Source of the DNA: Capillimicrobium parvum
Lineage (GTDB): Bacteria; Actinomycetota; Thermoleophilia; Solirubrobacterales; Solirubrobacteraceae
DNA: 64,000 nt
NCBI RefSeq assembly: GCF_021172045.1
Contig: NZ_CP087164.1
Coordinates: 2,542,001 to 2,606,000 of the forward strand
Direction of reading: 5' to 3'
Part shown: piece by piece, positions 49,116-61,631 of the stretch
How positions within the stretch are numbered: the stretch's first letter is position 1
Layout: each line of letters starts with the position of its first letter
The notes under the pieces: model-generated
The model's database searches: none
Told to the model about the DNA's origin: nothing
The model's input: only the letters and a program-made list of their open reading frames with translations
Program-made: the position numbers and the translations under genes

Positions 49116-50303
49116 TCAGCCCGTGACCTCGACGACGACGGCGGCGCCGGTGTCGCCGGCGGCGCATCCGGTGAACAGGCCGATGCCGCCGCCGCGGTCT
49201 TCGAGCGCGTGCAGCAGCTCGACGATGCCGCGCGCGCCGGTCGGGCCCTGCGGGTGGCCGTAGATGAGGCTGCAGCCGTAGGGGTTGAGGGCGCGCGCAT
49301 CGACGCCGGTCTCGCGGGCGAACCACACGTCGTTGACGACGAACGGATTGTGGGTCTTGACGATGTCGACGTCGTCGAACGTCAGCCCGGCGTCGTGGAG
49401 TGCCGCGCGTGCGGCGGGCACCGGGGCCTTGGGCATCGTGCCGGCGTCGACGCGGGCGAAGCCGGTGGACCGGATGCGGGCCAGAGGGCCGTCCACGCCC
49501 AGGTCGCGCGCCTGCTGGGCGGTGGTGAGGATCATCCCGGCGGCGCCGTCGGCCGGGTGGGTCTGGCTGCCGTAACTCACGACGCCATCCGGCGTGACCG
49601 GGGCCAGCGCACCGAGCTCCTCGAGGACGGCGGGTCGGATGCCCTGATCCTCCTCGATCTCGGTCGCGCGCTTCCCGCGGCCGACGGTGATCGGAACCAT
49701 CCAGCGGCGCTGGAAGGCGCGGTCGTCGGCGAGAGCGTCGGCGTACTGCTCGTAGCGGCGGACGGTGAGCTCGTCGAGGTGCGACTTGTCCATGCCGCCC
49801 TCGACCGCGACGCGCTCCGCCGTCGCGAGCATCGACTCGCCGGTCATCGGGTCGCGGGCGAAGGAGTCGAGGACCCAGTTCTCGCTGTCCGGGGTGCCGC
49901 CGGGTGCGCTCGTGCGTGGGTAGGTGAGGTGCGGTCCGTTCGATGTGCGGTCGGTGGTGACGACGAGGCGCGCGCCCATCGGCTCGACGTCCTGGGTTGC
50001 CGCCGCCGCGTGCAGCGCGGCCACCGAGGTGGCGCATGCCTGCGAGATCATGGGACCGCTGACGCCGGGGAACCCGAGTTGCGCGGCGAGGGTGGGAGCG
50101 CCGTAGAACGCCTCCTTCTGGGGAATGGTCCAGCCTAGGACGAGCTCGCGGACCGGCCACGTCGTCCCGCGCTCGCGCAGCGCACGCCCGGTGACCTGCT
50201 TGGCCAGCTCGAGGCTGTTGAGGTCGGCGGTGGCTCCCTGCCAGCGCACGAACGGCGACGACCACGCGGCCCGCAGGGGAATGACGGTGTTCTCGAAGCG
50301 CAC
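49116..50303 (-). CDS. Thiolase (acetyl-CoA acetyltransferase family)
   Basis: A 395-residue thiolase. The acyl-accepting Cys is C90 ('MISQACATSVAALHAAAAT'). The C-terminal signatures are 'NPYGCSLIYGHPQGPTGAR' with the active His and 'FTGCAAGDTGAAVVVEV' with the proton-acceptor Cys; 'KTHNPFVVND' supplies the Asn. It likely cleaves or forms a beta-ketoacyl-CoA at the end of the catabolic route. It is divergent from the aldolase operon across a 171-bp region holding operator site 1. Confidence 0.88.
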   Translation of the reverse strand: MRFENTVIPLRAAWSSPFVRWQGATADLNSLELAKQVTGRALRERGTTWPVRELVLGWTIPQKEAFYGAPTLAAQLGFPGVSGPMISQACATSVAALHAAAATQDVEPMGARLVVTTDRTSNGPHLTYPRTSAPGGTPDSENWVLDSFARDPMTGESMLATAERVAVEGGMDKSHLDELTVRRYEQYADALADDRAFQRRWMVPITVGRGKRATEIEEDQGIRPAVLEELGALAPVTPDGVVSYGSQTHPADGAAGMILTTAQQARDLGVDGPLARIRSTGFARVDAGTMPKAPVPAARAALHDAGLTFDDVDIVKTHNPFVVNDVWFARETGVDARALNPYGCSLIYGHPQGPTGARGIVELLHALEDRGGGIGLFTGCAAGDTGAAVVVEVTG

Positions 50304-50431: not shown

Positions 50432-50450
50432 GATACGCTCCGTTGCGTAC
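50432..50450. promoter_or_regulatory. Catabolic operator, site 1
   Basis: GATACGC-TCCGTT-GCGTAC, an interrupted palindrome in the divergent thiolase/aldolase promoter region. The same sequence recurs at 59256 (on the other strand) and in variants at 54329 and 59321. Confidence 0.75.
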
Positions 50451-50474: not shown

Positions 50475-51101
50475 GTGGCACGGACACCGCAGGTTGGCAC
50501 GGCGGACATCACGGGCGTCGTCGCCTACCAGCCCACGACGGTCCGCACCGACGTCGTCATCGACCGCAACACGAAGGACGCGATCGACCTCGACGAGGCG
50601 GCGCGGGCCGCCGACGTGCTGGTCCGGGACGGAGCGAGCGCGATCTGCCTGAACGGCACGTTCGGCGAGCTGTCGTCGCTCACCCTCGAGGAGATCCTCG
50701 CCTTCACGCGCGCCGTCGTGGAGTCGGTCGCCGACCGCGTGCCGGTGTTCGGGGGAGCCACGACGCTGAACACCCGAGACACGCTCGACCGGGCGCGCCG
50801 GTTCCGCGAGATCGGCGCTCACGGCCTGAACCTCGGCCGCGGGATGCTCTCCGCCATGGGCGACGTCAACATCGTCCGCTGGTACCAGGACGTCGCGCAG
50901 GAGCTGCCCGATATGGCGATCTTCCGCTACGACGACGTCCAGGCGTTCAAGCGCCCGATCAACACCGCGGTCTATCGCGAGCTGGCGAAGATCCCGCAGG
51001 TCGTCGCCTGCAAGTACCGCACGCAGATCGTCGTCGGGCGCATGATCCAGACGAACACCTACAACGCCGGTCTCGAGGCGGCCGCGGCAGTCCCGGCATG
51101 A
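50475..51101 (+). CDS. DHDPS/NahE-type aldolase, C-terminally truncated
   Basis: A 208-residue class I aldolase-type protein. 'ICLNGTFGELSSLTLEEILA' is the G-T-F-G-E carboxylate-binding motif seen in hydratase-aldolases such as NahE. 'IFRYDDVQAFKRPI' carries the catalytic Tyr (Y152), and K180 in 'VVACKYRTQ' would be the Schiff-base lysine. Family members are about 300-330 residues, so the last third of the barrel is missing. After 'GRMIQTNTYNAGLEA' the frame ends and the RraA-like gene starts (ATGA overlap). Either an internal deletion joined them or the protein is inactive. It follows operator 1 and an AGGAGGAGG site. Confidence 0.7.
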   Translation: MARTPQVGTADITGVVAYQPTTVRTDVVIDRNTKDAIDLDEAARAADVLVRDGASAICLNGTFGELSSLTLEEILAFTRAVVESVADRVPVFGGATTLNTRDTLDRARRFREIGAHGLNLGRGMLSAMGDVNIVRWYQDVAQELPDMAIFRYDDVQAFKRPINTAVYRELAKIPQVVACKYRTQIVVGRMIQTNTYNAGLEAAAAVPA

Positions 51102-51708
51102 GACTTGCGCAGCGGCTGGCCGCGCTCAGCGCGTCGGGCGTCTCCGACGCGACCGGTGGCCAGGGCGTCGTGCGCACCGGCCTGATCCGCTACAGCGGCT
51201 CGGGCACCGTCGCCGGCCGCGCCGTGACCGCCGATTGCGCGGAGGGCTCGCTGCTCGCGGTGTTCGGTGCGCTCGACCGGGCGCAGCCGGCGACGTGCTC
51301 TGCATGACCGCCCCGGGCGACACCGCCTATCTGGGCGAGCTGCTCGCGACGGACATCGCCAACCGCGGCCTCGCGGCGGCGGTGGTCGACGGCCTCATCC
51401 GCGACAGCGAGGCGCTGCCGGGCCTGCCGGTCTCGTTCTTCGCGCGCGGCGTCACGCCGACGGCCCGTCGCGGCGACGACCCAGGGCGATCCATGATCCC
51501 CATCGACCTGGGCGGGGTGCAGGTGCGTCCGGGAGACTGGATCGTCGCCGACGGGGACGGCGTCGTGGCGATCGCCGCCGGCGAGGTCGACAGCGTGCTG
51601 GCCAAGGCCGAGGAGGCTGCGCGGCTGGAGGAGCGGATGCTCGAGCGCATCAGGGCGGGCGCCAACGTGATGGACGCCGTCCGCGCGGTGATCGGGGCGC
51701 CGTCGTGA
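51098..51708 (+). pseudogene. RraA/HMG-aldolase-like gene, frameshifted
   Basis: The first frame (51098-51307) reads 'LAALSASGVSDATGGQGVVR' to 'AVFGALDRAQP'. The homologous continuation is in the next frame: 'GDVLCMTAPGDTAYLGELLA', 'AAAVVDGLIRDSEALPGLPV', 'VQVRPGDWIVADGDGVVAI'. One missing G near 51291 (CCGGCGAC for CCGGGCGAC) explains the shift. Together they give a protein of about 203 residues of the RraA-like 4-hydroxy-4-methyl-2-oxoglutarate aldolase family, which cleaves products of ring fission. A base-call error is as likely as real inactivation. Confidence 0.75.
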
Positions 51709-53207
51709 GCGGGACGGCGACGCGGCCGGCGCCGATGATGATCGGCGCGGAGCACGAGACGCGGTCCGGCGAGACCCTTGACGTCCTGACGCCCTCGACC
51801 GGCGAGGTGATCGCGCGGGTGCCCGCAGGCGACGCGACGGACGTGGATCTCGCCGTCGCGCGCGCGAAGGAGGCGTTCGCGACGTGGTCGCGCGTCCCCG
51901 CCGCCCAGCGCGCGAAGCTGATCAACCGCCTCGCCGACCTCGTCGACGAGCGGCTGCCCGAGCTGTTCGAGCTCGAGACGTCGAACAACGGCCGCCCGAT
52001 CGTCGAGACGCGCGCCCAGCTGTCGATGGCCGGCGGCATCTACCGCTACAACGCCGCCCTCGCGCTGACCGAGCGCGGCGAGACGTTCGACGCCGGCCCG
52101 CAGCACCATGGCTACCTGCAGCGCTCGCCGCTCGGCGTGTGTGGCGTGATCGTCCCGTTCAACCACCCGTTTCTCATCATGGCCCGCGGCGTGGCGCCCG
52201 CGCTGGCCGCGGGCAACACCGTGGTCGTCAAGCCGTCCGAGCTCACGCCGCTCACCGCGCTGCGCTTCGCCCGTCTCGCGGCGGAGGCGGGGATCCCCGA
52301 CGGCGTCGTCAACGTCGTCACGGGCCTCGGCCCGGCGGTCGGGGCGCCGCTGACCCGCCACCCGGACGTCAAGAAGATCGAGTTCACCGGCGGCGCGGGG
52401 ACCGGGCGGCAGGTCGCGGTGGCCGCGGCCGAGCGCTTCGTCTCCTACAGCGCCGAGCTCGGCGGCAAGACGCCGGTGCTGGTGTTCGACGATGCGGGCG
52501 TGGAGGAGGCCGCGCGCGGCTGCGCGTTCGCCGCCTTCATCGCGGCCGGGCAGACGTGCGTCTGCGGCTCCCGGATCCTCGTGCAGGAGTCGATGTACGA
52601 CGCGTTCGTCAGCGCGCTCGTCGAGCAGACCGGGGCGATCGGCATCGGCGATCCGGCGGATCGCGCGACGCAGATGGGGCCGCTCATCTCCGCCGCCGCG
52701 CGCGACCGCTCGGCCGCCTACACCGCGATCGCGCGCGACGAGGGTGCGACGATCCTCACCGGGGGCGCGCCGCCGCGGCTCGACGCGCCCTTCGACCGCG
52801 GGTTCTTCTTCGCGCCGACCATCGTCGGCAACGCGACGAACGGGATGCGCTGCGCCCAGGAGGAGATCTTCGGCCCGGTCATCGTCGTGGCGACGTTCCG
52901 CGACGAGGCGGACGCGATCCGCCAGGCCAACGACATCCCGTTCGGGCTCGGCGCGGCGATCTGGACCCGCGACGTCGCCCGCGCACACCGGGTGGCCGGC
53001 CGGATCGAGGCCGGGATGGTGTGGGTCAACGACCACCACCGGACCGCGCCGGCGATGCCGTGGGGCGGGGTGAAGGACCCCGGCTTCGGCAAGCAGTCGG
53101 GGCGGGAGGCGTACGACTCGTTCACCACCGTGAAGGCGGTCGTCGTCCGGACGGCTCCCGACCCGGTCGACTGGTACGGCAGCGACCCGCACGACCGGCT
53201 GAACTGA
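51705..53207 (+). CDS. Aldehyde dehydrogenase
   Basis: A 500-residue NAD(P)-dependent ALDH. Visible are the Asn region 'VPFNHPFLIM' (N153), cofactor strands 'NTVVVKPSELTPL' and 'IEFTGGAGTGRQV', general base E251 ('ELGGKTP'), catalytic C285 ('GQTCVCGSR') and 'EEIFGPVIVVATF'. GTG 51705 overlaps the preceding stop. It likely oxidises a semialdehyde or aldehyde from ring-cleavage or aldolase steps. Last gene of the operon driven from operator 1. Confidence 0.92.
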   Translation: MSGTATRPAPMMIGAEHETRSGETLDVLTPSTGEVIARVPAGDATDVDLAVARAKEAFATWSRVPAAQRAKLINRLADLVDERLPELFELETSNNGRPIVETRAQLSMAGGIYRYNAALALTERGETFDAGPQHHGYLQRSPLGVCGVIVPFNHPFLIMARGVAPALAAGNTVVVKPSELTPLTALRFARLAAEAGIPDGVVNVVTGLGPAVGAPLTRHPDVKKIEFTGGAGTGRQVAVAAAERFVSYSAELGGKTPVLVFDDAGVEEAARGCAFAAFIAAGQTCVCGSRILVQESMYDAFVSALVEQTGAIGIGDPADRATQMGPLISAAARDRSAAYTAIARDEGATILTGGAPPRLDAPFDRGFFFAPTIVGNATNGMRCAQEEIFGPVIVVATFRDEADAIRQANDIPFGLGAAIWTRDVARAHRVAGRIEAGMVWVNDHHRTAPAMPWGGVKDPGFGKQSGREAYDSFTTVKAVVVRTAPDPVDWYGSDPHDRLN

Positions 53208-53240: not shown

Positions 53241-54308
53241 TCAGTTGCTCGGGGCGGCGAGGACCTCCGCGACCACCCGGCGGTGCTCACGCATGGTCTC
53301 CATCCCGTCCTGTCCGGGCTGGCGGCCGAACCCGCAGTACATCGCTACCCCGAAGTCGTCGAGGTACTGCGACGCGGTCGCGTGGCGGCGGCGCAGGCCA
53401 TCGACCCCGTCGACGGGCAGCACGATGCCCAGGTACAGGCGCGTATCGGGCGTGTCGAGGTCGGCAAGCGGCGCGAAGAACCGGCTGTCCTCGCTGCGCA
53501 GGTCACGCGGGCCGGCCAGGTGCAGGAAGTCGACCGGGCGCCCGGACTCCTGCACCGCGTAGTTCGCCATCTTGACCAGCAGCGACATGTCCCGGGCCTC
53601 GTACATCGGCCACGCCGGGAACGTGCCGTAGCAGAGGTGATACCCGACCAGGACCTGCTCGGGGATCATCCGCGTCAGCCGGGTGACGCCGCCGGCGAAG
53701 CGCTTCCAGGCGTCGCCCTCCATCCACGAGATGACGCCCTCGATGTTGAGGACCTCCCAGCACACGTCCCACTGGATGACCAGGTCCTCGGGCGGGATGG
53801 CGTCGGTCAGCCGCCGGATCTCCCGGGAGAACATCTCCTCGTAGGCGGCGGAGACGACCGCGAAGTCGTGCTCCCAGTCGCGCTTGAAGCTCGCCATGAC
53901 GCTGGTGTTGAACGGCAGGCCGACCTGGAAGCGCACGTGCGCCGGGATGGCGCCCTCGTCGCGCAGCCTGCGGAAGACCTCATAGGACGCGATCGCGTCG
54001 TCGAGGCGCGGCCAGCGGTCGAAGGTCAGCTCGCCGACGCCGATGCCGTCGCGCACGCCGAGCACGGTGATCTGCTCGACATGACGCGGCGGAACGGCCC
54101 CCGGCTCGACCACCTCGATGCCCTCGTTGGGCTCCAGCATCGTCATGTGGTCGTAGGCGGCCCACAGCGCGCGCGGGCCGGTCTCGCCGTCGGGGAGCGC
54201 GAACACGAGGTCGCCGTACAGTTCGCCTCCGACGCGCAGGGCCTCCTCCGTCGATGCGGCAGGGAGGCTTCCCACCAAGAGCAGCTCGCTCGAAACCCTG
54301 GGGGCCAT
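53241..54308 (-). CDS. MetE-like zinc TIM-barrel protein A
   Basis: A 355-residue protein of an uncharacterised UROD/MetE-like family. It opens 'ELLLVGSLPAASTEEALRVG' and 'ALPDGETGPRALW'. The potential zinc site is H224-x-C226 in 'GYHLCYGTFPAWPM' and C325 in 'YCGFGRQ', the pattern used by cobalamin-independent methionine synthase for thiol activation. 'FFAPLADLDTPDTRLYLGIV' is shared with the paralog at 60537. A methyltransfer (demethylation) or other thiol-dependent reaction is inferred. It is divergent from the operon at 54366, with operator 2 between. Confidence 0.72.
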   Translation of the reverse strand: MAPRVSSELLLVGSLPAASTEEALRVGGELYGDLVFALPDGETGPRALWAAYDHMTMLEPNEGIEVVEPGAVPPRHVEQITVLGVRDGIGVGELTFDRWPRLDDAIASYEVFRRLRDEGAIPAHVRFQVGLPFNTSVMASFKRDWEHDFAVVSAAYEEMFSREIRRLTDAIPPEDLVIQWDVCWEVLNIEGVISWMEGDAWKRFAGGVTRLTRMIPEQVLVGYHLCYGTFPAWPMYEARDMSLLVKMANYAVQESGRPVDFLHLAGPRDLRSEDSRFFAPLADLDTPDTRLYLGIVLPVDGVDGLRRRHATASQYLDDFGVAMYCGFGRQPGQDGMETMREHRRVVAEVLAAPSN

Positions 54309-54328
54309 GGACTCTCTCCTTCCAGATG

Positions 54329-54348
54329 GATACGAAACGAATCGTATC
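54329..54348. promoter_or_regulatory. Catabolic operator, site 2
   Basis: GATACGA-AACGAA-TCGTATC, with perfect 7-bp arms and a 6-bp spacer, 20 bp from one divergent start and 17 bp from the other. Binding here would block both genes. Confidence 0.8.
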
Positions 54349-54365
54349 ACGGTAGGATGGCGCCG

Positions 54366-55361
54366 ATGAGCGACGCTCCGTTCTTCGTCTCCTCGCAGGC
54401 GGCCACGCAGGTGTTCGCCTGGCCGGAGGCGATCGCCGCGCTGGCGCAGGCCTACGCGGCGCCGCCCAACCCGGCGGCAACTCCGCCGCGCACCGTCGCC
54501 CACGACGACGGCGCCTGGCTGCGCACCCTGCCGGCGCTGCCCAGCGGCGGGCGGTACTTCGGCGCCAAGCTCATGGCGATGGCGCCCGCCTCGGCCCAGC
54601 CCGGGGTCGAGTACGTGATCGTGTTGTGGGATCGCGAGACCAGCCGCATCGCGGCGTTCGTGGACGGCCACGAGGTCACGGCCCTGCGCACCGCGGCGAC
54701 CTCGGCCGCCGCCCTCGACCGCCTGGCCCCACCCGGCCCGATCCGCCTCGGCGTCCTCGGCAGCGGCCTGGAGGCGACGATGCACGTGCGCGCCTTCTCC
54801 GCCGTGCGGCCGATCGAACGGCTCGTCGTCTCGAGCCCCACGCCGGCGCGCCGCGAGGCGTTCGCCGAGACGGCCGCCCGCGACCTGGGCTGCGCGGCCG
54901 AGGCGGTCGCCGACGGCGCCGCCGCGGTGCGGGGCGCGTCGGTCGTGCTGGCGGCGGCCCGGTCGCGCGGCGAGCAGCCGATCCTCCACGGCGACTGGCT
55001 CGCGCCGGAGGTGGCCGTCGTGTCCATCGGCTCGACCATCCCGGCCCAGCGCGAGATCGGCGCCAGCGTCGTCGCCGCGAGCGACCTCATCGTCTGCGAC
55101 ACCGTCGAGGAGGTCGTCGAGCAGACGGGCGACATGCTCGAAGCCGCCCGCGCCGGCATCGACTTCGCCGGTCGGACCTTCTCGCTGCACGACCTGCTCG
55201 CCGGAGCGCTGGACGAGCGGCTGGCGCACGCGCCGCGGCGCCTGTTCAAGTCGGTGGGCGGCGGACTCCAGGACGTCGTCGTCGCCGAGGTGATCGTCCG
55301 CCGCGCCCTGGAGGCGGGCCTGACCACGCCCTTGCCGATCGGGTTCGACACGAAGGAGTAG
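54366..55361 (+). CDS. Ornithine cyclodeaminase/mu-crystallin family protein
   Basis: A 331-residue NAD(P)-binding protein: 'GRYFGAKLMAMAPASAQPGV' with the family Lys, 'HEVTALRTAATSAAALDRLA' with the R-T-A substrate motif, the Rossmann motif 'GVLGSGLEATMHVRAF', and 'VSIGSTIPAQREI'. The family includes ornithine cyclodeaminase, ketimine reductases and alanine dehydrogenases; the real substrate here is unknown. It starts a three-gene operon (3-bp and 18-bp gaps) behind operator 2. Confidence 0.85.
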   Translation: MSDAPFFVSSQAATQVFAWPEAIAALAQAYAAPPNPAATPPRTVAHDDGAWLRTLPALPSGGRYFGAKLMAMAPASAQPGVEYVIVLWDRETSRIAAFVDGHEVTALRTAATSAAALDRLAPPGPIRLGVLGSGLEATMHVRAFSAVRPIERLVVSSPTPARREAFAETAARDLGCAAEAVADGAAAVRGASVVLAAARSRGEQPILHGDWLAPEVAVVSIGSTIPAQREIGASVVAASDLIVCDTVEEVVEQTGDMLEAARAGIDFAGRTFSLHDLLAGALDERLAHAPRRLFKSVGGGLQDVVVAEVIVRRALEAGLTTPLPIGFDTKE

Positions 55362-55364
55362 GAC

Positions 55365-56384
55365 ATGGCCGACTACACCAAGGATGACGCGCGCGCCTGG
55401 GCCCGGGAGCGCCTGACCGGCTGCGCGGCCGTCACGATCCCGACGTTCACCGCTGACCTCAAGCGGCTCAACGAGCACGCGATCCGCCACGACGTCGAGC
55501 GGGCCGTCGAGCACGGGTTCAGCTACACGCTCCTGATGACGGAGACGGCCATCACGCCCGAGGAGGCCGGCCGGTTCACCGCCGTCGCGCGCGAGGCCGC
55601 GGCGGGGCGCCTGCGGCTGTTCGCCCACGCCGCGTTCGGCACGCTGGAGGACAACGTCGAAGCGGTGCGCACCGCCGAACGGGAGGGCGCCGATCTCGTC
55701 CTGCTCGCCTACCCGCCGCAGTTCTGGCCGACCAGCGAGCAGGAGATCTACGACTGGACCCGCGAGGTCTGCGAGGCGACGAGCCTCGGCGTGATGCTGT
55801 TCGGCCTGCCAGCGTGGGGCTTCGAGCGTGTCCATCCCGCCGGCATGCCGGTCTCCTTCGTGCGGCGGGTGCTCGACACGATGCCGAACGTCGTCGCCAT
55901 CAAGGCCGAGCAGGGCTTCCCGCTCGTCGCCGGCGTGTGCGAGATGTACCACCACTTCCGCGACGAGGTCGTCATCAGCTGCCCGATCGAGTCCGACGCG
56001 ATCCCGCTGATGAGCGTCATGGACCTGCAGTTCTCCGGGACCAGCAACACGCAGTGGATGAGCGACTGGTACCCGCGCACGTTCGAGCTGGCCCGCACCG
56101 GCCGCTGGGAGGAGGCGATGCAGCGCTTCTGGGCGGTGCAGCCCGCACGTCAGGCCGCCACCGCGGCGACCCAGGCCTACATCGGCGGCACGACCGTGCT
56201 CAACCGGACGATGTGGAAGTACCAGGACTGGCTGGCCGGATACAACGGCGGGCCGCTGCGCGCCCCGGCGATGCGCGTCCCTGACCGGTTCATGAAGTCC
56301 CTGCGCGCTGGCTTGGAGGCCGCGGGCCTGCCGGTCACGACCGACCCTGACCGGGAGTTCATGACCGGCCGCCATCCGGCCTGA
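55365..56384 (+). CDS. DHDPS-family protein (aldolase/lyase)
   Basis: A 339-residue TIM-barrel protein of the DapA/NAL superfamily. 'GCAAVTIPTFTADLKRLNEH' is the N-terminal strand. 'YTLLMTETAITPEEAGRFTA' occupies the G-T-T-G-E site with T-E-T, a variant. The Schiff-base Lys is in 'NVVAIKAEQGFPLVA', and 'GVMLFGLPAWGFERVHP' fills the Tyr-containing strand without the usual Tyr. The changes suggest a reaction other than standard pyruvate aldol chemistry. It ends with a long 'YQDWLAGYNGGPLRAPAMRV' region. It sits between the OCD-like and MetE-like genes. Confidence 0.78.
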   Translation: MADYTKDDARAWARERLTGCAAVTIPTFTADLKRLNEHAIRHDVERAVEHGFSYTLLMTETAITPEEAGRFTAVAREAAAGRLRLFAHAAFGTLEDNVEAVRTAEREGADLVLLAYPPQFWPTSEQEIYDWTREVCEATSLGVMLFGLPAWGFERVHPAGMPVSFVRRVLDTMPNVVAIKAEQGFPLVAGVCEMYHHFRDEVVISCPIESDAIPLMSVMDLQFSGTSNTQWMSDWYPRTFELARTGRWEEAMQRFWAVQPARQAATAATQAYIGGTTVLNRTMWKYQDWLAGYNGGPLRAPAMRVPDRFMKSLRAGLEAAGLPVTTDPDREFMTGRHPA

Positions 56385-56402
56385 GACGCGAGGGGAGAGA
56401 CG

Positions 56403-57563
56403 ATGCCCGACACCATCCGCGCCGACCACATCGGCAGCCTGCTGCGGCCGCCTGCGCTGCTCGAGGAGATCCACGAGATCTACGACGCAGGCCATACGGC
56501 GCTGCTCGCCGCGGAGCGCGCGAAGGATCGCACGCGGCTGCACCAGCTCGAGGACGAGGCGATACGGCGGGTCGTCGCGCGCCAGCAGGATCTCGGGCTC
56601 GAAGTCGTCACCGACGGCGAGTTCCGGCGCCTCATGTACTTCAACTCCTTCTTCGACGCCGTCGACGGGCTCGCCCCGAGCGCCTCGAAGCTGCACTTCC
56701 GCGGCGACGACGGCAGCGTCGTCGAGCACGAGGGGCCGGTCGCCATCGTGGGGCGCGTCGCCAAGCGCGAGAGCCCCGCGGCGGCCGAGGCGCAGTTCGT
56801 CTCGGGCCTCACCGACCGCACCGTCAAGGTGGCGTTCCCGACCGCGTCCTTCCTGGTCGGCCAGGCGGCCCTGGGCCCGGGCATCGAGGCCTACGGGTCG
56901 ACCGAGGAGGCGTCCGCGCAGCTGGTCGGCGTGCTGCGCGAGCTGGTCGACGACGCCGTCGCGGCGGGCGCGACCTACGTCCAGTTCGACGTGAGCGGCT
57001 ACATGATGCTGTCGGCCTCGCCGCTGGGCCAGCTGGTGCGCTCGCGCGGCATCGACCTCGACGCGCTCCTGGAGCAGATGCTGGAGGCCGACCGCCGCCT
57101 CGTCGCGGGCCTGCCCGACCACGTCACGATCTGCATGCACCAGTGCCGCGGCAACTACGCGTCACGCTACCTGGCCGACCACGACGGCCTGGGCGAGCTG
57201 GGCGAGACGTTCTTCTCGCTGCCCTACGACCGCTTCACCCTCGAGTGGGACGGCCACGTCGAGCGCACCGACGCCGACTATGCGGCGCTGGAGCGCGTGC
57301 CGCCCGGCGGGCCCACGGTCGTGCTCGGCGTCGTCAGCACGCGCCACCCGGAGCTCGAGTCGGCCGATGCCATCGCCGCGACGGTCGACCGCGCGGCGCG
57401 CCACGTCGCGCTCGAGCAGCTGGCGATCTCGCCGCAGTGCGGGTTCTCGTCCGCGCTGACGACGAGCGACGACGACCGCCCCGACGGCAACCTCATCGAC
57501 GAGGACGCCCAGTGGCGCAAGCTCGAGCTCCTCGTGACGACCGCGCAGCGGATCTGGGGCTGA
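56403..57563 (+). CDS. Cobalamin-independent methionine synthase II-like protein (B)
   Basis: A 386-residue MetE C-terminal-domain-like protein of the YxjG/YxjH type. 'IRADHIGSLLRPPALLEEI' and 'EVVTDGEFRRLMYFNSFFD' are family hallmarks. Zinc ligands H246-x-C248 ('CMHQCRGNYASRY'), E281 and C346 ('ISPQCGFSS') are all present. It lacks the N-terminal MetE half that binds folate, so the methyl donor is not methyl-tetrahydrofolate in the usual way. In this catabolic operon a role in removing a methyl group from a substrate is possible. RBS GGGGAGAG precedes the ATG. Confidence 0.85.
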   Translation: MPDTIRADHIGSLLRPPALLEEIHEIYDAGHTALLAAERAKDRTRLHQLEDEAIRRVVARQQDLGLEVVTDGEFRRLMYFNSFFDAVDGLAPSASKLHFRGDDGSVVEHEGPVAIVGRVAKRESPAAAEAQFVSGLTDRTVKVAFPTASFLVGQAALGPGIEAYGSTEEASAQLVGVLRELVDDAVAAGATYVQFDVSGYMMLSASPLGQLVRSRGIDLDALLEQMLEADRRLVAGLPDHVTICMHQCRGNYASRYLADHDGLGELGETFFSLPYDRFTLEWDGHVERTDADYAALERVPPGGPTVVLGVVSTRHPELESADAIAATVDRAARHVALEQLAISPQCGFSSALTTSDDDRPDGNLIDEDAQWRKLELLVTTAQRIWG

Positions 57564-57718
57564 ACGCGGCCGGCGGTGGTCGCGCCAGGGGTGCCGACGC
57601 CGGCCCGCGGCCTCCAAGGTGGGCTTGCAGCGCCTGCCGCCGGGAGGCGCGCCCCCGTGGGGTCCAGTGCAGCCGTCCGGAAGCTCTTCGAGACCCGAAG
57701 AACTTGCGGATGGGTGTA

Positions 57719-59230
57719 CTAGTGAGGGACCGCCGCGGTGGTGTGGCCGGTCCACCGCGAGATGAGCTCGTCGAGCCCGGTCGCGTCGTCGGCGACGCCG
57801 AGCACGTAGCGGTCGGGCCGCACGACCAGCGCACCGCCGGCGCCGTGGCGCGCCAGCAGCTCGTCCGCGACCGCCGCGCCGGGGTCGAGCACGTGGAACC
57901 AGCGTTCGTCGGCCAGCGCGCGGCGGGTGTCGTCGTCCAGCGCCGCCTCGACCGCGGGCGTCATCGCCACGAGGAAGCGCCAGCCGGTCTCGTCGTCCAG
58001 GCGCGACCCGTCGGGCAGGACCGCCTGCTCGGAGAGCAGGCCGGCGGGCGGCGCCGCATCGCCGTGCAGGCCGGGCCCGAGCGGCGGCGTCTCGTTGCGG
58101 TAGGGCATCGGGTTGGCGAGCAGGTGCGCGTCGCGTCCGGCGGCGACCTGGGGGTCCGTCGTGTTGATCACGTTGGACAGCTCCGTGGCGATCTCGATCC
58201 ACGCGCGCGCGTGGGCGCGGCGCTCGGCCTCGTAGGTGCCGAGCAGGCCGTCCGCGGCCTCGCCGCGCAGCACGGCCGCGAGCTTCCACGACAGGTTGAT
58301 CGTGTCGCGGATCCCGGAACACAGGCCCTGGGCGCGCAGCGGCGGCTGCATGTGCGCGGCGTCGCCGGCGAGGAAGACGCGGCCGACGCGCCAGGGGTCC
58401 GCCAGCAGCGACCGGAAGGTGTAGATGGCGGAGCGGTCGATGCGCACGTCGTCGCGCCCCGCGAACCGCTCGATCAGTCCGTAGGCGCCTTCGGGCGTCC
58501 CGATCACGGAGCGGTCGTCGTCCGGGAGGACCATGAACTCCCAGCGCAGGCGCGGCTCGCCCATCGGCACGAAGAAGTGGGGACGGCTCGGCCAGCAGTA
58601 GCCGATCATCGCCTCGGGCAGGTCGTCCAGCGGACGCAGCTTGACGCCGTCGATGACGACCCAGTCCTGCTCGGGACCGAGCGTCTCGAAGTTGGCGCCG
58701 ATCGCCCTGCGCACGAACGAGGAGCCGCCGTCGCAGCCGACCGCGTACGCGGCCGTGACCGTCCGCGTGGTGCTCGAGGCGCGCGCACGGACGGTGAGCC
58801 GCACGCCGTCCCCGTCCTGCTCGAGCTGCTCGACGGTGTGGCCGTCCCACATCTCGATGCCGGGCAGCTCCGCCATGGTCCGGCGCAGCAGGGACTCGAC
58901 GTCGGGCTGATGGAACATGTGGGTGTCGCCCCAGCCCTGGCTGCCGGTGCGGTCGTAGGGCAGGTCCCAGTCGATCAGGGCCTGGCCGGCGTCGTTCTCG
59001 TAGCGGAAGCCCCGCATCGGCACCGAGACGCCCGCGATGCCGTCGGCGACGCCGAGCGACTGGTACATCCGCAGGATCTCGCCATCGAAGCAGACGGCGC
59101 GGGGGAGGTGGTAGATCGACGTCTCGCGCTCGATCGCCACGGCGCGGACGCCCTGCTGGCCGAGCGCGATGGCCAGTGTCGCGCCCACGGGACCGCATCC
59201 AACGATCGCCACGTCGAAGTCGTGTGCCAC
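57719..59230 (-). CDS. FAD-dependent aromatic hydroxylase (MhpA-like)
   Basis: A 503-residue group A flavin monooxygenase. 'DVAIVGCGPVGATLAIALGQ' is the FAD-binding GxGxxG, 'YAVGCDGGSSFVRRAIGANF' the DG motif, and 'VFLAGDAAHMQPPLRAQGL' the GD motif contacting FAD ribityl. The C-terminal thioredoxin-like tail is retained ('ALVVRPDRYVLGVADDATGL'). It resembles 3-(3-hydroxyphenyl)propionate hydroxylase, which adds an ortho hydroxyl before ring cleavage. GTG 59230 follows GGAGGAGAG. Its promoter holds operator 3. It is convergent with the MetE-like operon. Confidence 0.9.
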   Translation of the reverse strand: MAHDFDVAIVGCGPVGATLAIALGQQGVRAVAIERETSIYHLPRAVCFDGEILRMYQSLGVADGIAGVSVPMRGFRYENDAGQALIDWDLPYDRTGSQGWGDTHMFHQPDVESLLRRTMAELPGIEMWDGHTVEQLEQDGDGVRLTVRARASSTTRTVTAAYAVGCDGGSSFVRRAIGANFETLGPEQDWVVIDGVKLRPLDDLPEAMIGYCWPSRPHFFVPMGEPRLRWEFMVLPDDDRSVIGTPEGAYGLIERFAGRDDVRIDRSAIYTFRSLLADPWRVGRVFLAGDAAHMQPPLRAQGLCSGIRDTINLSWKLAAVLRGEAADGLLGTYEAERRAHARAWIEIATELSNVINTTDPQVAAGRDAHLLANPMPYRNETPPLGPGLHGDAAPPAGLLSEQAVLPDGSRLDDETGWRFLVAMTPAVEAALDDDTRRALADERWFHVLDPGAAVADELLARHGAGGALVVRPDRYVLGVADDATGLDELISRWTGHTTAAVPH

Positions 59231-59255
59231 TGTTGCTCTCCTCCTGCCTTCCGCC

Positions 59256-59276
59256 GTATACGCAACGGAGCGTATC
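59256..59276. promoter_or_regulatory. Catabolic operator, site 3
   Basis: GTATACGC-AACGGA-GCGTATC, the inverse of site 1, 26 bp upstream of the hydroxylase start. Confidence 0.78.
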
Positions 59277-59320
59277 GGGTCTTGAGCGGGTTTGCCACTT
59301 GCCAGTCGGTAAACCGCTAC

Positions 59321-59341
59321 GATACGCTCCGTTTCGGTAAC
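59321..59341. promoter_or_regulatory. Catabolic operator, site 4
   Basis: GATACGC-TCCGTT-TCGGTAAC, with a good left arm and a degenerate right arm, 15 bp upstream of the ribosome-site/ATG at 59356. It faces the dioxygenase operon. Confidence 0.65.
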
Positions 59342-59362
59342 GAGGGAGAGAGGACATGCGTC

Positions 59363-59533
59363 GTGCACTTCGAGGACGGCGTCGAAGGCTCGCAGCGGCG
59401 AGCCGACGCCGTCGCCCGGCACGTGACCGGCTTCGGCGTGGCGACGGAGTGCGGCCTCGGCCTGCTGCCGCGCGACGAAGTCCGCCCGACCTTGGAGATC
59501 CACCGCGCGCTGCGGGCGCCGGTGGCCCACTGA
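59363..59533 (+). pseudogene. MetE-like zinc barrel protein, C-terminal remnant
   Basis: The frame from 59363 reads 'HFEDGVEGSQRRADAVARHV' and 'GFGVATECGLGLLPRDEV' and stops at 59533. It aligns with residues about 307-345 of the protein at 60537 ('HHDDGVAGFNRRAELARRHL', 'FGIGAVCGYGRLPAAEL'), including the zinc-ligand Cys. About 300 upstream codons are gone. A good ribosome site and ATG at 59356 remain in another frame, so a deletion fused the promoter and leader to the tail. The dioxygenase gene follows 12 bp later. Confidence 0.75.
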
Positions 59534-59545
59534 CCAGGAGAACCC

Positions 59546-60535
59546 ATGCCCCACCGACCGCTGTCCATGCTGTCGCACGTCGAGCTGCTGACCCCCAAGC
59601 TCGACGAGTCCGTCGCCTTCGCCCGCGAGATGCTCGGCATGTTCGTCGTCGCCGAAGAGGGAGACTCGGTCTACCTGCGCTGCTGGGGCGACTACTACGC
59701 CTACAGCCTGGTCCTGTCCGAGGGCGCCGAACCGGGGCTGGGCCACGCGTCGTTCCGCACCTGGAACGCCGAGCAGCTCGACATCGCGGTCGCCTCGGTC
59801 GAGGCGTCGGGCATCACCGGGCGCTGGATCGAGTCGTCCCACGGCCACGGCCGCGCGTACCGCTTCGACGGCCCCGGCGGCCACGCGACCGAGCTGTTCT
59901 GGGAGGTCGATCCCGCCGTTGTGCCCGCCGGCGAGGAGTCGCCGTATCCCGAGCGCCCGCAGCGCGCGGCCGGGCACGGCATCCCCGTGCGCCTGCTCGA
60001 CCACGTGACGGTGACGACGCCGGACGTGAAGTCGGCGATGTACTGGCATCGCGACGTGCTGGACTTCCGGCTGATGGCCGCCGTCGAGGAGGCGCCCGGC
60101 GCACCGTGGTTCTTCGGCATCGCGACGAACAACGAGAAGTCGCACGACCTCGGGTTCATCCTCGACTTCGACGGCATCCCGGGGCGCCTGCACCACCTGG
60201 CCTTCTGGGTCGAGACCAACCACGACCTGACCGAGGGCGCGCGGTTTCTCATCGAGCGCGGCTGCGAGCTCGACTACGGTCCCGGCCAGCACGGCATCGG
60301 CGAGCAGAACTACCTGTACTTCCGCGATCCGGCGGGCCTGCGCTACGAGCTCAACTCGGGCGGCTACCGCAACTACGTGCCTGACTGGGAGCCGCAGGTC
60401 TGGCGCTTCGAGGACGGTCCGAACAACACGTTCCGCACCGAGATCGGGATGCCCGCCGTGCACATGGTCGCGATTCCGCCCGGGATCGTCGGCAGCAGCG
60501 ACGAGGCGCTCGAGGGCATCGTGGCCAAGGGCTGA
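59546..60535 (+). CDS. Extradiol ring-cleavage dioxygenase (VOC type I)
   Basis: A 329-residue two-domain VOC protein like catechol 2,3-dioxygenase. Domain 1 (8-120) lacks the metal site, domain 2 (150-275) has the Fe ligands H153 ('LLDHVTVTTPD'), H217 ('GRLHHLAFW') and E268 ('GLRYELNSGGYRNY'). 'GPGQHGIGEQNYLYFRDPAG' is typical. It opens a catecholic ring next to a hydroxyl. Substrate is probably the product of the flavin hydroxylase encoded divergently. RBS CAGGAGAA precedes ATG 59546. Confidence 0.92.
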   Translation: MPHRPLSMLSHVELLTPKLDESVAFAREMLGMFVVAEEGDSVYLRCWGDYYAYSLVLSEGAEPGLGHASFRTWNAEQLDIAVASVEASGITGRWIESSHGHGRAYRFDGPGGHATELFWEVDPAVVPAGEESPYPERPQRAAGHGIPVRLLDHVTVTTPDVKSAMYWHRDVLDFRLMAAVEEAPGAPWFFGIATNNEKSHDLGFILDFDGIPGRLHHLAFWVETNHDLTEGARFLIERGCELDYGPGQHGIGEQNYLYFRDPAGLRYELNSGGYRNYVPDWEPQVWRFEDGPNNTFRTEIGMPAVHMVAIPPGIVGSSDEALEGIVAKG

Positions 60536-60536
60536 C

Positions 60537-61631
60537 ATGGCGACGCGGACACGAGGCGACGTCCTGCTCGTCGGCAGCCTGCCGTTCGACGAGGCGTCCG
60601 ACGCGCTGCGCGCGGGCGGCGAGCTGCTCGGCGAGCACCTGCGGGGCGTGCCGGACGGCGAGGTCGGCGACCGCAAGATCTGGATCGGGTTCTTGCCGCG
60701 GACCGTCTACAGGGATCATCCCGGCCTCGATCTGCTGCGCGCGCCCGAGGGCGGCGTCCAGCACCAGCCCGACGCCAAGCCGGACGTCTGGGAGGCGTCG
60801 TTCCTCTTCGGGATCCGCGACGGCGTCGAGACGCTGCGCTTCGACGACCTCGGCTACGGCCGTCTCGCCCTCGAGAGCTACCGCGAGTACCGACGGCTGC
60901 GCGACGAGGGCGTGATCCCCGACGGCGTCCGCTTCCAGGTCTGTCTGCCGGGGACCGGCAGCGCGGTCTCCTACTTCTTCGGGCGCATCGAGGATTGGCC
61001 GCGCGCCCACGCCGCGTACCACGACGCGATCCGCCGGGAGATCGAGATGATCGCCGCCGTGGTGCCGGCCGCGGAGCTGCAGGTCCAGTTCGACCTGGCC
61101 ATGGAGTTCGTCGACCTCGCCGCGGGGGAGGGCCGGGGTATAGCGCACTGGCCCGGCGAGCCGCTCGAGGCGCGCATCCAGCGTCACGCCGCCTATCTCG
61201 ACGAGCTGTGGAAGGGCCTCCCGGACGAGGCCCTGCTCGGCTACCACTGGTGCTACGGCACGTGGGGTGGGTGGCCGATGAAGGCGATGCCCGACCTGGG
61301 GTTGTGCGTCCGCATGTCGAACGAGGCCAAGCGGCGCAGCGGGCGGCGGCTGGACTACGTGCACATGCCCGTCGTGCGGGACCCGGACGAGGCGTTCTTC
61401 GCGCCGCTCGCGGATCTGGACGTGGGCGACACCGACGTCTATCTCGGGCTGGTCCACCACGACGACGGCGTCGCGGGCTTCAACCGCCGCGCCGAGCTGG
61501 CCCGGCGCCACCTGCCGCGGTTCGGCATCGGCGCGGTCTGCGGCTACGGGCGCCTGCCCGCCGCCGAGCTGCCCGACGTGCTGGCGCTGCATCGCGACTG
61601 CGCCGACGCGCTCGCCGCCGCCCGCGCGTAG
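60537..61631 (+). CDS. MetE-like zinc TIM-barrel protein C
   Basis: A 364-residue paralog of the protein at 53241, with the same opening ('DVLLVGSLPFDEASDALRAG', 'GVPDGEVGDRKIW'), zinc pattern H237-x-C239 ('GYHWCYGTWGGWPM') and C335 ('VCGYGRLP'), and 'FFAPLADLDVGDTDVYLGLV'. It starts one base after the dioxygenase stop, so it is strictly co-expressed with ring cleavage. That linkage is the best hint of a role in the same pathway, for example demethylating a methoxy- or methyl-substituted intermediate; this is inference. Confidence 0.75.
   Translation: MATRTRGDVLLVGSLPFDEASDALRAGGELLGEHLRGVPDGEVGDRKIWIGFLPRTVYRDHPGLDLLRAPEGGVQHQPDAKPDVWEASFLFGIRDGVETLRFDDLGYGRLALESYREYRRLRDEGVIPDGVRFQVCLPGTGSAVSYFFGRIEDWPRAHAAYHDAIRREIEMIAAVVPAAELQVQFDLAMEFVDLAAGEGRGIAHWPGEPLEARIQRHAAYLDELWKGLPDEALLGYHWCYGTWGGWPMKAMPDLGLCVRMSNEAKRRSGRRLDYVHMPVVRDPDEAFFAPLADLDVGDTDVYLGLVHHDDGVAGFNRRAELARRHLPRFGIGAVCGYGRLPAAELPDVLALHRDCADALAAARA

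What the first reader, a model, noticed from the sequence alone, without database searches (positions are those of the whole stretch)
53241..61631. Three MetE-like zinc barrels in one aromatic-degradation regulon: possible demethylases
Proteins A (53241), B (56403) and C (60537) all keep the H-x-C plus Cys zinc pattern of cobalamin-independent methionine synthase but lack its folate-binding half. C starts one base after the extradiol dioxygenase stop, and all share the same operator. Zinc-thiolate methyl transfer could remove methyl groups from a methoxylated aromatic, a route not established for such proteins.
Basis: inference. Interest (0 to 1): 0.68.

Follow-up and report, generated by a model that had tools for sequence, protein, structure and literature searches.

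The report
MetE-like zinc barrels in aromatic regulon
Three relatives of the zinc half of methionine synthase, two of them from a widespread protein family that no database names, are switched on together with a ring-cleaving pathway in a soil-type actinobacterium; they look like zinc-thiol methyl (or alkyl) transferases, but nothing yet shows that they take methyl groups off the aromatic substrate.

Summary
A (53241-54308, -), B (56403-57563, +) and C (60537-61631, +) are one-barrel proteins with the MetE zinc and homocysteine sites and no folate half. B belongs to PF01717. A and C (38% alike) belong to a family with no Pfam or NCBIfam match in 53 members. The A model (pLDDT 94) has MesD 3RPD (Z 21.4) and MetE as nearest folds. 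Profile alignment maps A residues E42, D181, H224, C226, H263, C325 onto MetE E484, D599, H641, C643, E665, C726, so this family swaps the zinc ligand Glu for His. The shared operator is real: in 5.95 Mb only five sites match with two or fewer mismatches, all in this regulon, which looks like a homoprotocatechuate-type meta-cleavage pathway. The demethylase reading is possible but unproven. For it: intact thiol site; a relative near a true syringate demethylase gene (DesA); frequent MetE-like neighbours. Against it: most A orthologues stand alone; this genome's closest A and B paralogues form a MetE-A-MetE run without ring-cleavage genes; a relative in a similar Bosea cluster has lost the zinc site; the growth substrate is unknown. 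Verdict: new variant of a known kind, donor unknown.

The parts
53241..54308 (-). Protein A, 355 aa: MetE/MesD-fold barrel of a family without a Pfam name; H224-x-C226, H263, C325, E42, D181, S14
56403..57563 (+). Protein B, 386 aa: PF01717 one-barrel MetE-like protein (PRK06520-like), complete H/C/E/C zinc set
60537..61631 (+). Protein C, 364 aa: same family as A (38% identity), separate clade; starts 1 base after the dioxygenase stop
59363..59533 (+). C-terminal remnant (56 codons, GTG) of a fourth A/C-family protein between operator and dioxygenase gene
   Evidence: 42% to C, E 8e-8
54331..54348 (+). Operator copy, divergent promoter of A and of the 54366 operon (OCD, aldolase, B)
50432..50449 (-). 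Operator copy before the aldolase / RraA / ALDH operon
59259..59276 (+). Operator copy before the FAD hydroxylase (transcribed -)
59321..59338 (-). Operator copy (2 mismatches) before remnant, dioxygenase and C
59546..60535 (+). VOC extradiol dioxygenase (catechol 2,3-dioxygenase / HpaD-like)
   Evidence: TIGR03211 240 bits, TIGR02295 153 bits, both below cut-off
57719..59230 (-). FAD hydroxylase, MhpA-like
   Evidence: NF004829 504 bits, cut-off 390
54366..55361 (+). Ornithine cyclodeaminase / mu-crystallin family protein, first gene of the operon of B
55365..56384 (+). DHDPS-superfamily protein (aldolase-like)
50475..51101 (+). Short DHDPS-superfamily protein (208 aa)
51705..53207 (+). Aldehyde dehydrogenase, HpaE-like
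   Evidence: TIGR02299 482 bits, cut-off 638

Best explanation
A, B and C are zinc-dependent thiol methyl (or small-alkyl) transferases built on the MetE catalytic barrel, induced with a homoprotocatechuate-type meta-cleavage pathway. Zinc held by His/Cys/His/Cys (A, C) or His/Cys/Glu/Cys (B) turns the thiol of homocysteine, or a similar amino-acid thiol seated on the conserved Ser/Glu/Asp, into a nucleophile. The thiolate takes a methyl group from a donor tied to the growth substrate, and methionine feeds the SAM cycle. Shown by computation: fold, ligand positions, homocysteine-site residues, single regulon. Inferred: the metal, the thiol, methyl transfer itself. Unknown: the donor, whether an O-methyl or N-methyl group of the substrate or a methylated carrier.
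For: Model of A pLDDT 94.2, pTM 0.93; VIA Z 21.4 to MesD 3RPD and about 20 to MetE C-terminal barrels, UROD lower at about 18. Residue mapping to MetE for E42, D181, H224, C226, H263, C325; 27 of 27 paralogues found by whole-genome HMM search, not by the HxCYG pattern, keep His, Cys, Cys and His/Gln. B keeps every MetE ligand. Operator unique to this regulon. A-family genes lie within two genes of MetE-like genes in 7 of 49 distant loci (7/183 near genes against 5/436 farther, p 0.034 uncorrected), and also in L032, L044 and L043. A-domain fused to a SAM-methyltransferase domain in six loci, one of them followed by homocysteine S-methyltransferase and by a gene that reads as SAM synthetase. 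A MetH-type gene is present, so housekeeping methionine synthesis need not rest on these proteins.
Against: No biochemistry. The donor is not identified. Most A orthologues (58-66%) are single genes with unrelated neighbours. A relative in a Bosea MhpA/VOC/FAH cluster has lost both zinc Cys residues and the DGE motif, so some members of such clusters cannot do this chemistry. The MetE adjacency counts include related genomes.
Confidence: 0.42

Rival explanations
1. One reading: A, B and C are aryl-methyl-ether demethylases, thiolate attacking the methyl carbon of a methoxyphenol, without folate or cobalamin.
For: No known O-demethylase type was seen among the genes at the operator sites. A relative (L084) lies 1.2 kb from a DesA syringate O-demethylase (802.6 bits, cut-off 800) and L094 has a LigM/DesA-like neighbour. 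LigM/DesA show that a nucleophile can take an aryl O-methyl without corrinoid (PMC6888825 for LigM/DesA in SYK-6; the chemistry from own knowledge).
Against: L084 already has a dedicated demethylase; the A clade and the L032 MetE-A-MetE run have no aromatic genes; no evidence of a methoxylated substrate; no paper found that reports such a reaction.
Confidence: 0.15
2. The methyl donor is an N- or S-methyl compound (for example an N-methylated phenethylamine that feeds a homoprotocatechuate pathway), as in betaine-homocysteine methyltransferase.
For: HpaD/HpaE/HpaG-like genes and an imine-reductase-like OCD protein in the operon of B suggest a side chain with nitrogen. A single-enzyme transfer from betaine and DMSP to homocysteine is documented for Bmt, a different family (PMC12366255).
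Against: OCD-family function is broad; no amine oxidase or N-demethylase marker was identified among the regulon genes.
Confidence: 0.12
3. Methyl salvage: the proteins are core methionine synthases that take methyl from a carrier loaded elsewhere, needed when the substrate supplies surplus C1.
For: MesA-D precedent for MetE barrels without the folate half (PMC7857596); a LigM/DesA-like gene lies a few genes from a MetE-like gene in another cluster of this genome (L033).
Against: No corrinoid protein identified in the regulon; no MesX match in the genome (but its control did not ring); A and C differ from MetE and the Mes families in the fourth zinc ligand.
Confidence: 0.13
4. Zinc-thiolate chemistry other than methyl transfer: thiol addition to an epoxide, quinone or other electrophile, like epoxyalkane:coenzyme M transferase, or ether cleavage.
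For: The same zinc-thiolate logic serves alkyl transfer in that enzyme (own knowledge); catechol pathways make electrophiles; the family is widespread without C1 markers nearby.
Against: The homocysteine-site residues are kept; fusions to methyltransferase domains and MetE neighbours point to methyl metabolism.
Confidence: 0.13

Closest known systems
Core methionine synthases MesA-MesD (MesD = PDB 3RPD)
   Same: Single MetE catalytic barrel, no folate half, zinc and homocysteine residues; top structural match of A (Z 21.4)
   Different: A and C have His for the zinc-ligand Glu and no PF01717 match; no MesX match in this genome (control silent); induced with a catabolic pathway
PRK06520 / PDB 1YPX MetE-like proteins (PF01717)
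   Same: B aligns over its full length (E 1.2e-38 to 1YPX) and keeps all ligands
   Different: B scores 183 bits, below the PRK06520 cut-off of 313; function of 1YPX itself is only putative
MetE (cobalamin-independent methionine synthase), C-terminal domain
   Same: Fold, zinc site, homocysteine site
   Different: No N-terminal folate barrel; about 11-18% identity for A
UROD / MtaA-like methyltransferases
   Same: Same barrel superfamily (Z about 18)
   Different: Lower structural scores than MetE/MesD; MetE-type ligand positions fit better
LigM / DesA O-demethylases
   Different: GcvT fold (PF01571) using tetrahydrofolate; A, B and C have no such domain

Membership tests
Core methionine synthase (Mes) / MetE catalytic domain - protein B | PF01717 catalytic domain without N-terminal folate barrel | tested here: met
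   E 1.1e-15; 386 aa single domain
Core methionine synthase (Mes) / MetE catalytic domain - protein B | Zinc ligands His, Cys, Glu, Cys and homocysteine residues Ser, Glu, Asp | tested here: met
Core methionine synthase (Mes) / MetE catalytic domain - protein B | Methyl transfer to homocysteine from a corrinoid protein or the MesX partner | not testable with these tools
   MesX search of own genome negative, but its control genomes did not ring: inconclusive
PF01717 (Meth_synt_2) - proteins A and C | Match to the Pfam model | tested here: not met
   none of 53 family members matches at E 0.01
MetE/UROD barrel superfamily - proteins A and C | MetE-type fold | tested here: met
   A; C by 38% identity to A
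MetE/Mes active site - proteins A and C | Zinc ligands His641, Cys643, Cys726 (E. coli numbers) | tested here: met
   H224, C226, C325 map onto them
MetE/Mes active site - proteins A and C | Fourth zinc ligand Glu665 (Asp in MesB) | tested here: not met
   His263 aligns there; His in 50 and Gln in 3 of 53. A smaller alignment shifted it by two
MetE/Mes active site - proteins A and C | Homocysteine residues Glu484 and Asp599 | tested here: met
   E42, D181, invariant in 53 of 53; S14 for Ser433 placed by eye only
Aryl O-demethylase (LigM/DesA type) | GcvT fold (PF01571) | tested here: not met
   no match in A, B or C
Aryl O-demethylase by function | Removal of methyl from a methoxyaromatic | not testable with these tools
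   needs an enzyme assay

The most novel reading that the evidence does not exclude
A and C (and B) are cobalamin- and folate-free methoxyaryl:homocysteine S-methyltransferases: a zinc-thiolate route for aromatic O-demethylation, in a large unnamed family with a His/Cys/His/Cys zinc site.
Probability: 0.13. Interest if true: 0.8.

Novelty: new variant of a known kind. Interest (0 to 1): 0.5.

Why it matters
About 400 encoded relatives were found in one scan of species genomes, annotated as hypothetical proteins where records were read, up to 11 copies in one genome. The family has a predicted zinc and thiol site, so its function can be attacked directly. If it moves methyl groups off catabolic substrates it would add a route of aromatic or N-methyl demethylation that needs neither P450, Rieske enzyme, folate nor cobalamin, of use in lignin conversion. 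The tightly bounded regulon gives a test organism and an inducible readout.

Tried and rejected
BLASTP A against B shows nothing useful; only profiles and structure link them. PDB sequence search with the A profile gave only 1YPX at E 0.01. My first guess at the operator was wrong; the corrected motif is. Near-versus-far neighbour counts for VOC, FAH, FAD hydroxylase, Rieske and LigM are not significant, so I do not claim that the A-family as a whole is tied to aromatic catabolism. A search for relatives of the second aldolase gave no cluster with MetE-like genes. MesX search: control silent. No paper on MetE-like O-demethylation was found (open-licence library only). The invariance of H224 and C226 in the 53-row alignment is partly built in by the HxCYG search pattern; E42, D181, H263 and C325 are not in that pattern, and the whole-genome paralogues were not chosen by it.

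Full report
Setting. The window is 2,542,001-2,606,000 of a single-contig 5.95-Mb genome; its closest A and C relatives are Solirubrobacterales and other Actinomycetota, so I take it to be an actinobacterium of that kind. The finding covers a divergent gene region: thiolase (49116-50303, -), short DHDPS-type aldolase, RraA-like gene, HpaE-like aldehyde dehydrogenase, A (-), an operon OCD / DHDPS-type aldolase / B, an MhpA-like FAD hydroxylase (-), a VOC extradiol dioxygenase, C, then butyrate kinase and phosphate butyryltransferase (-) (the last name from reading the sequence). Beyond the window follow what read as a BKACE and a cupin gene, two FAH genes with HpaG-like scores, a TetR gene and an ABC transporter operon. 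HpaD-, HpaE- and HpaG-like scores, all below their cut-offs, suggest a homoprotocatechuate-type meta-cleavage pathway; the substrate itself is unknown.

Observation. Coordinates, gene order and the one-base gap before C are right. B is a clear PF01717 one-barrel protein whose profile aligns with MetE and MesD through the zinc and homocysteine residues. A and C have no Pfam or NCBIfam match, nor does any of 53 relatives show a meaningful one. They are nevertheless MetE barrels: hhalign 97.6%, MetE-profile hits by family members, and an AlphaFold model of A with pLDDT 94.2 whose nearest solved structures are MesD 3RPD (Z 21.4, 3.6 A over 297 residues) and the C-terminal half of MetE, ahead of UROD.

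Active site. Price et al. (PMC7857596) give for E. coli MetE the zinc ligands H641, C643, E665, C726 and the substrate residues S433, E484, D599. In a profile alignment with two full MetE proteins A residues E42, D181, H224, C226, H263 and C325 fall on E484, D599, H641, C643, E665 and C726. The Glu-to-His change at the fourth ligand is kept in 50 of 53 relatives, with Gln in the other three, and in nearly all of 27 paralogues that were found by whole-genome HMM search. Metal binding itself is inferred.

Regulon. The motif TACGNAACGNANCGTATC occurs with two or fewer mismatches only five times in the genome, all here: before the 50475 operon, between A and the OCD-aldolase-B operon, before the FAD hydroxylase, before dioxygenase plus C, and before the ABC operon at window position 67052. 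The promoter region of the TetR gene at about 66386 holds CGATACGCAACGGAGCGATAG, a diverged copy, so this TetR is the likely regulator (inference).

Context elsewhere. One scan found 399 loci that encode relatives. The clade of A (38 rows, support 100/100) is actinobacterial and mostly solitary. C falls in another clade, nearest to a 55%-identical protein of a Solirubrobacterales MAG. So A and C are old paralogues brought under one operator, not a fresh tandem duplicate. In the same genome the 65% paralogue of A sits between two MetE-like genes on the same strand (L032: 8701-9840, 9837-10910, 10919-12007) beside a divergent TetR gene, with no ring-cleavage genes: an A-plus-B module exists apart from this pathway. 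Elsewhere A-family genes adjoin MetE-like genes more often than more distant genes do (7/183 against 5/436, p 0.034 uncorrected), and in Rokubacteria and a same-family genome the domain is fused to a SAM-methyltransferase domain. A few relatives lie in aromatic clusters: L117 (FAH - A - VOC in a row), L084 (VOC, A, DesA at 802.6 bits with cut-off 800, FAD hydroxylase), L094 (LigM/DesA-like, LigB-like). Over 49 distant loci these associations are not significant. The Bosea plasmid relative, in a cluster with VOC, MhpA-like and FAH genes, has lost the zinc and thiol residues, a warning against assigning demethylation by neighbourhood.

Mechanism. The best-supported reading is zinc-thiolate methyl (or alkyl) transfer to homocysteine or a like thiol, coupled to the pathway's substrate; the genome keeps a MetH-type gene, so this need not be housekeeping methionine synthesis. 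O-demethylation of a methoxyaromatic is one option among several donors. The regulon has no recognised demethylase of its own, which leaves room for it, but no methyl group in the substrate is shown.

Verdict. Observation confirmed and sharpened; interpretation partly supported. New variant (His-for-Glu zinc site, unnamed family) of a known kind (core MetE barrels).

Noticed in passing
59363-59533: A 56-codon remnant of a fourth A/C-family protein keeps the final Cys-Gly motif and lies between operator and dioxygenase gene, as if an older gene there lost its first 900 bases.
   Followed up: partly
51098-51708: RraA-like gene is split by an apparent one-base frameshift near 51290-51310: decayed gene or sequencing error.
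   Followed up: no
50475-51101: DHDPS-type protein of only 208 aa, about 80 short of the model, overlapping the RraA start by 4 bases.
   Followed up: no
L038 2386-2967 and 3052-3069: TetR gene just outside the window with a diverged operator copy in its own promoter and a perfect copy behind it; likely regulator.
   Followed up: partly
L032 8701-12007: MetE-like / A2 / MetE-like run with divergent TetR, no ring-cleavage genes: an apparent A-B module on its own.
   Followed up: partly
L033, L034, L035: Other clusters of this genome combine MetE-like genes with genes that read as P450, HpaB-type, NicX-like and Rieske genes; L033 also has a DesA/LigM-like gene (241 bits, below cut-off).
   Followed up: no
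L043 9124-15490: A-domain fused to SAM-methyltransferase, then homocysteine S-methyltransferase fused to a methyltransferase, then a gene that reads as SAM synthetase.
   Followed up: partly
G512 (genome of L081): Eleven A-family copies in one 3.7-Mb proteobacterial MAG, at scattered places.
   Followed up: partly
L172 9740-10735: Bosea relative without the zinc ligands (Asp and Ser for the two Cys) in an MhpA/VOC/FAH cluster: a possible pseudo-enzyme.
   Followed up: partly
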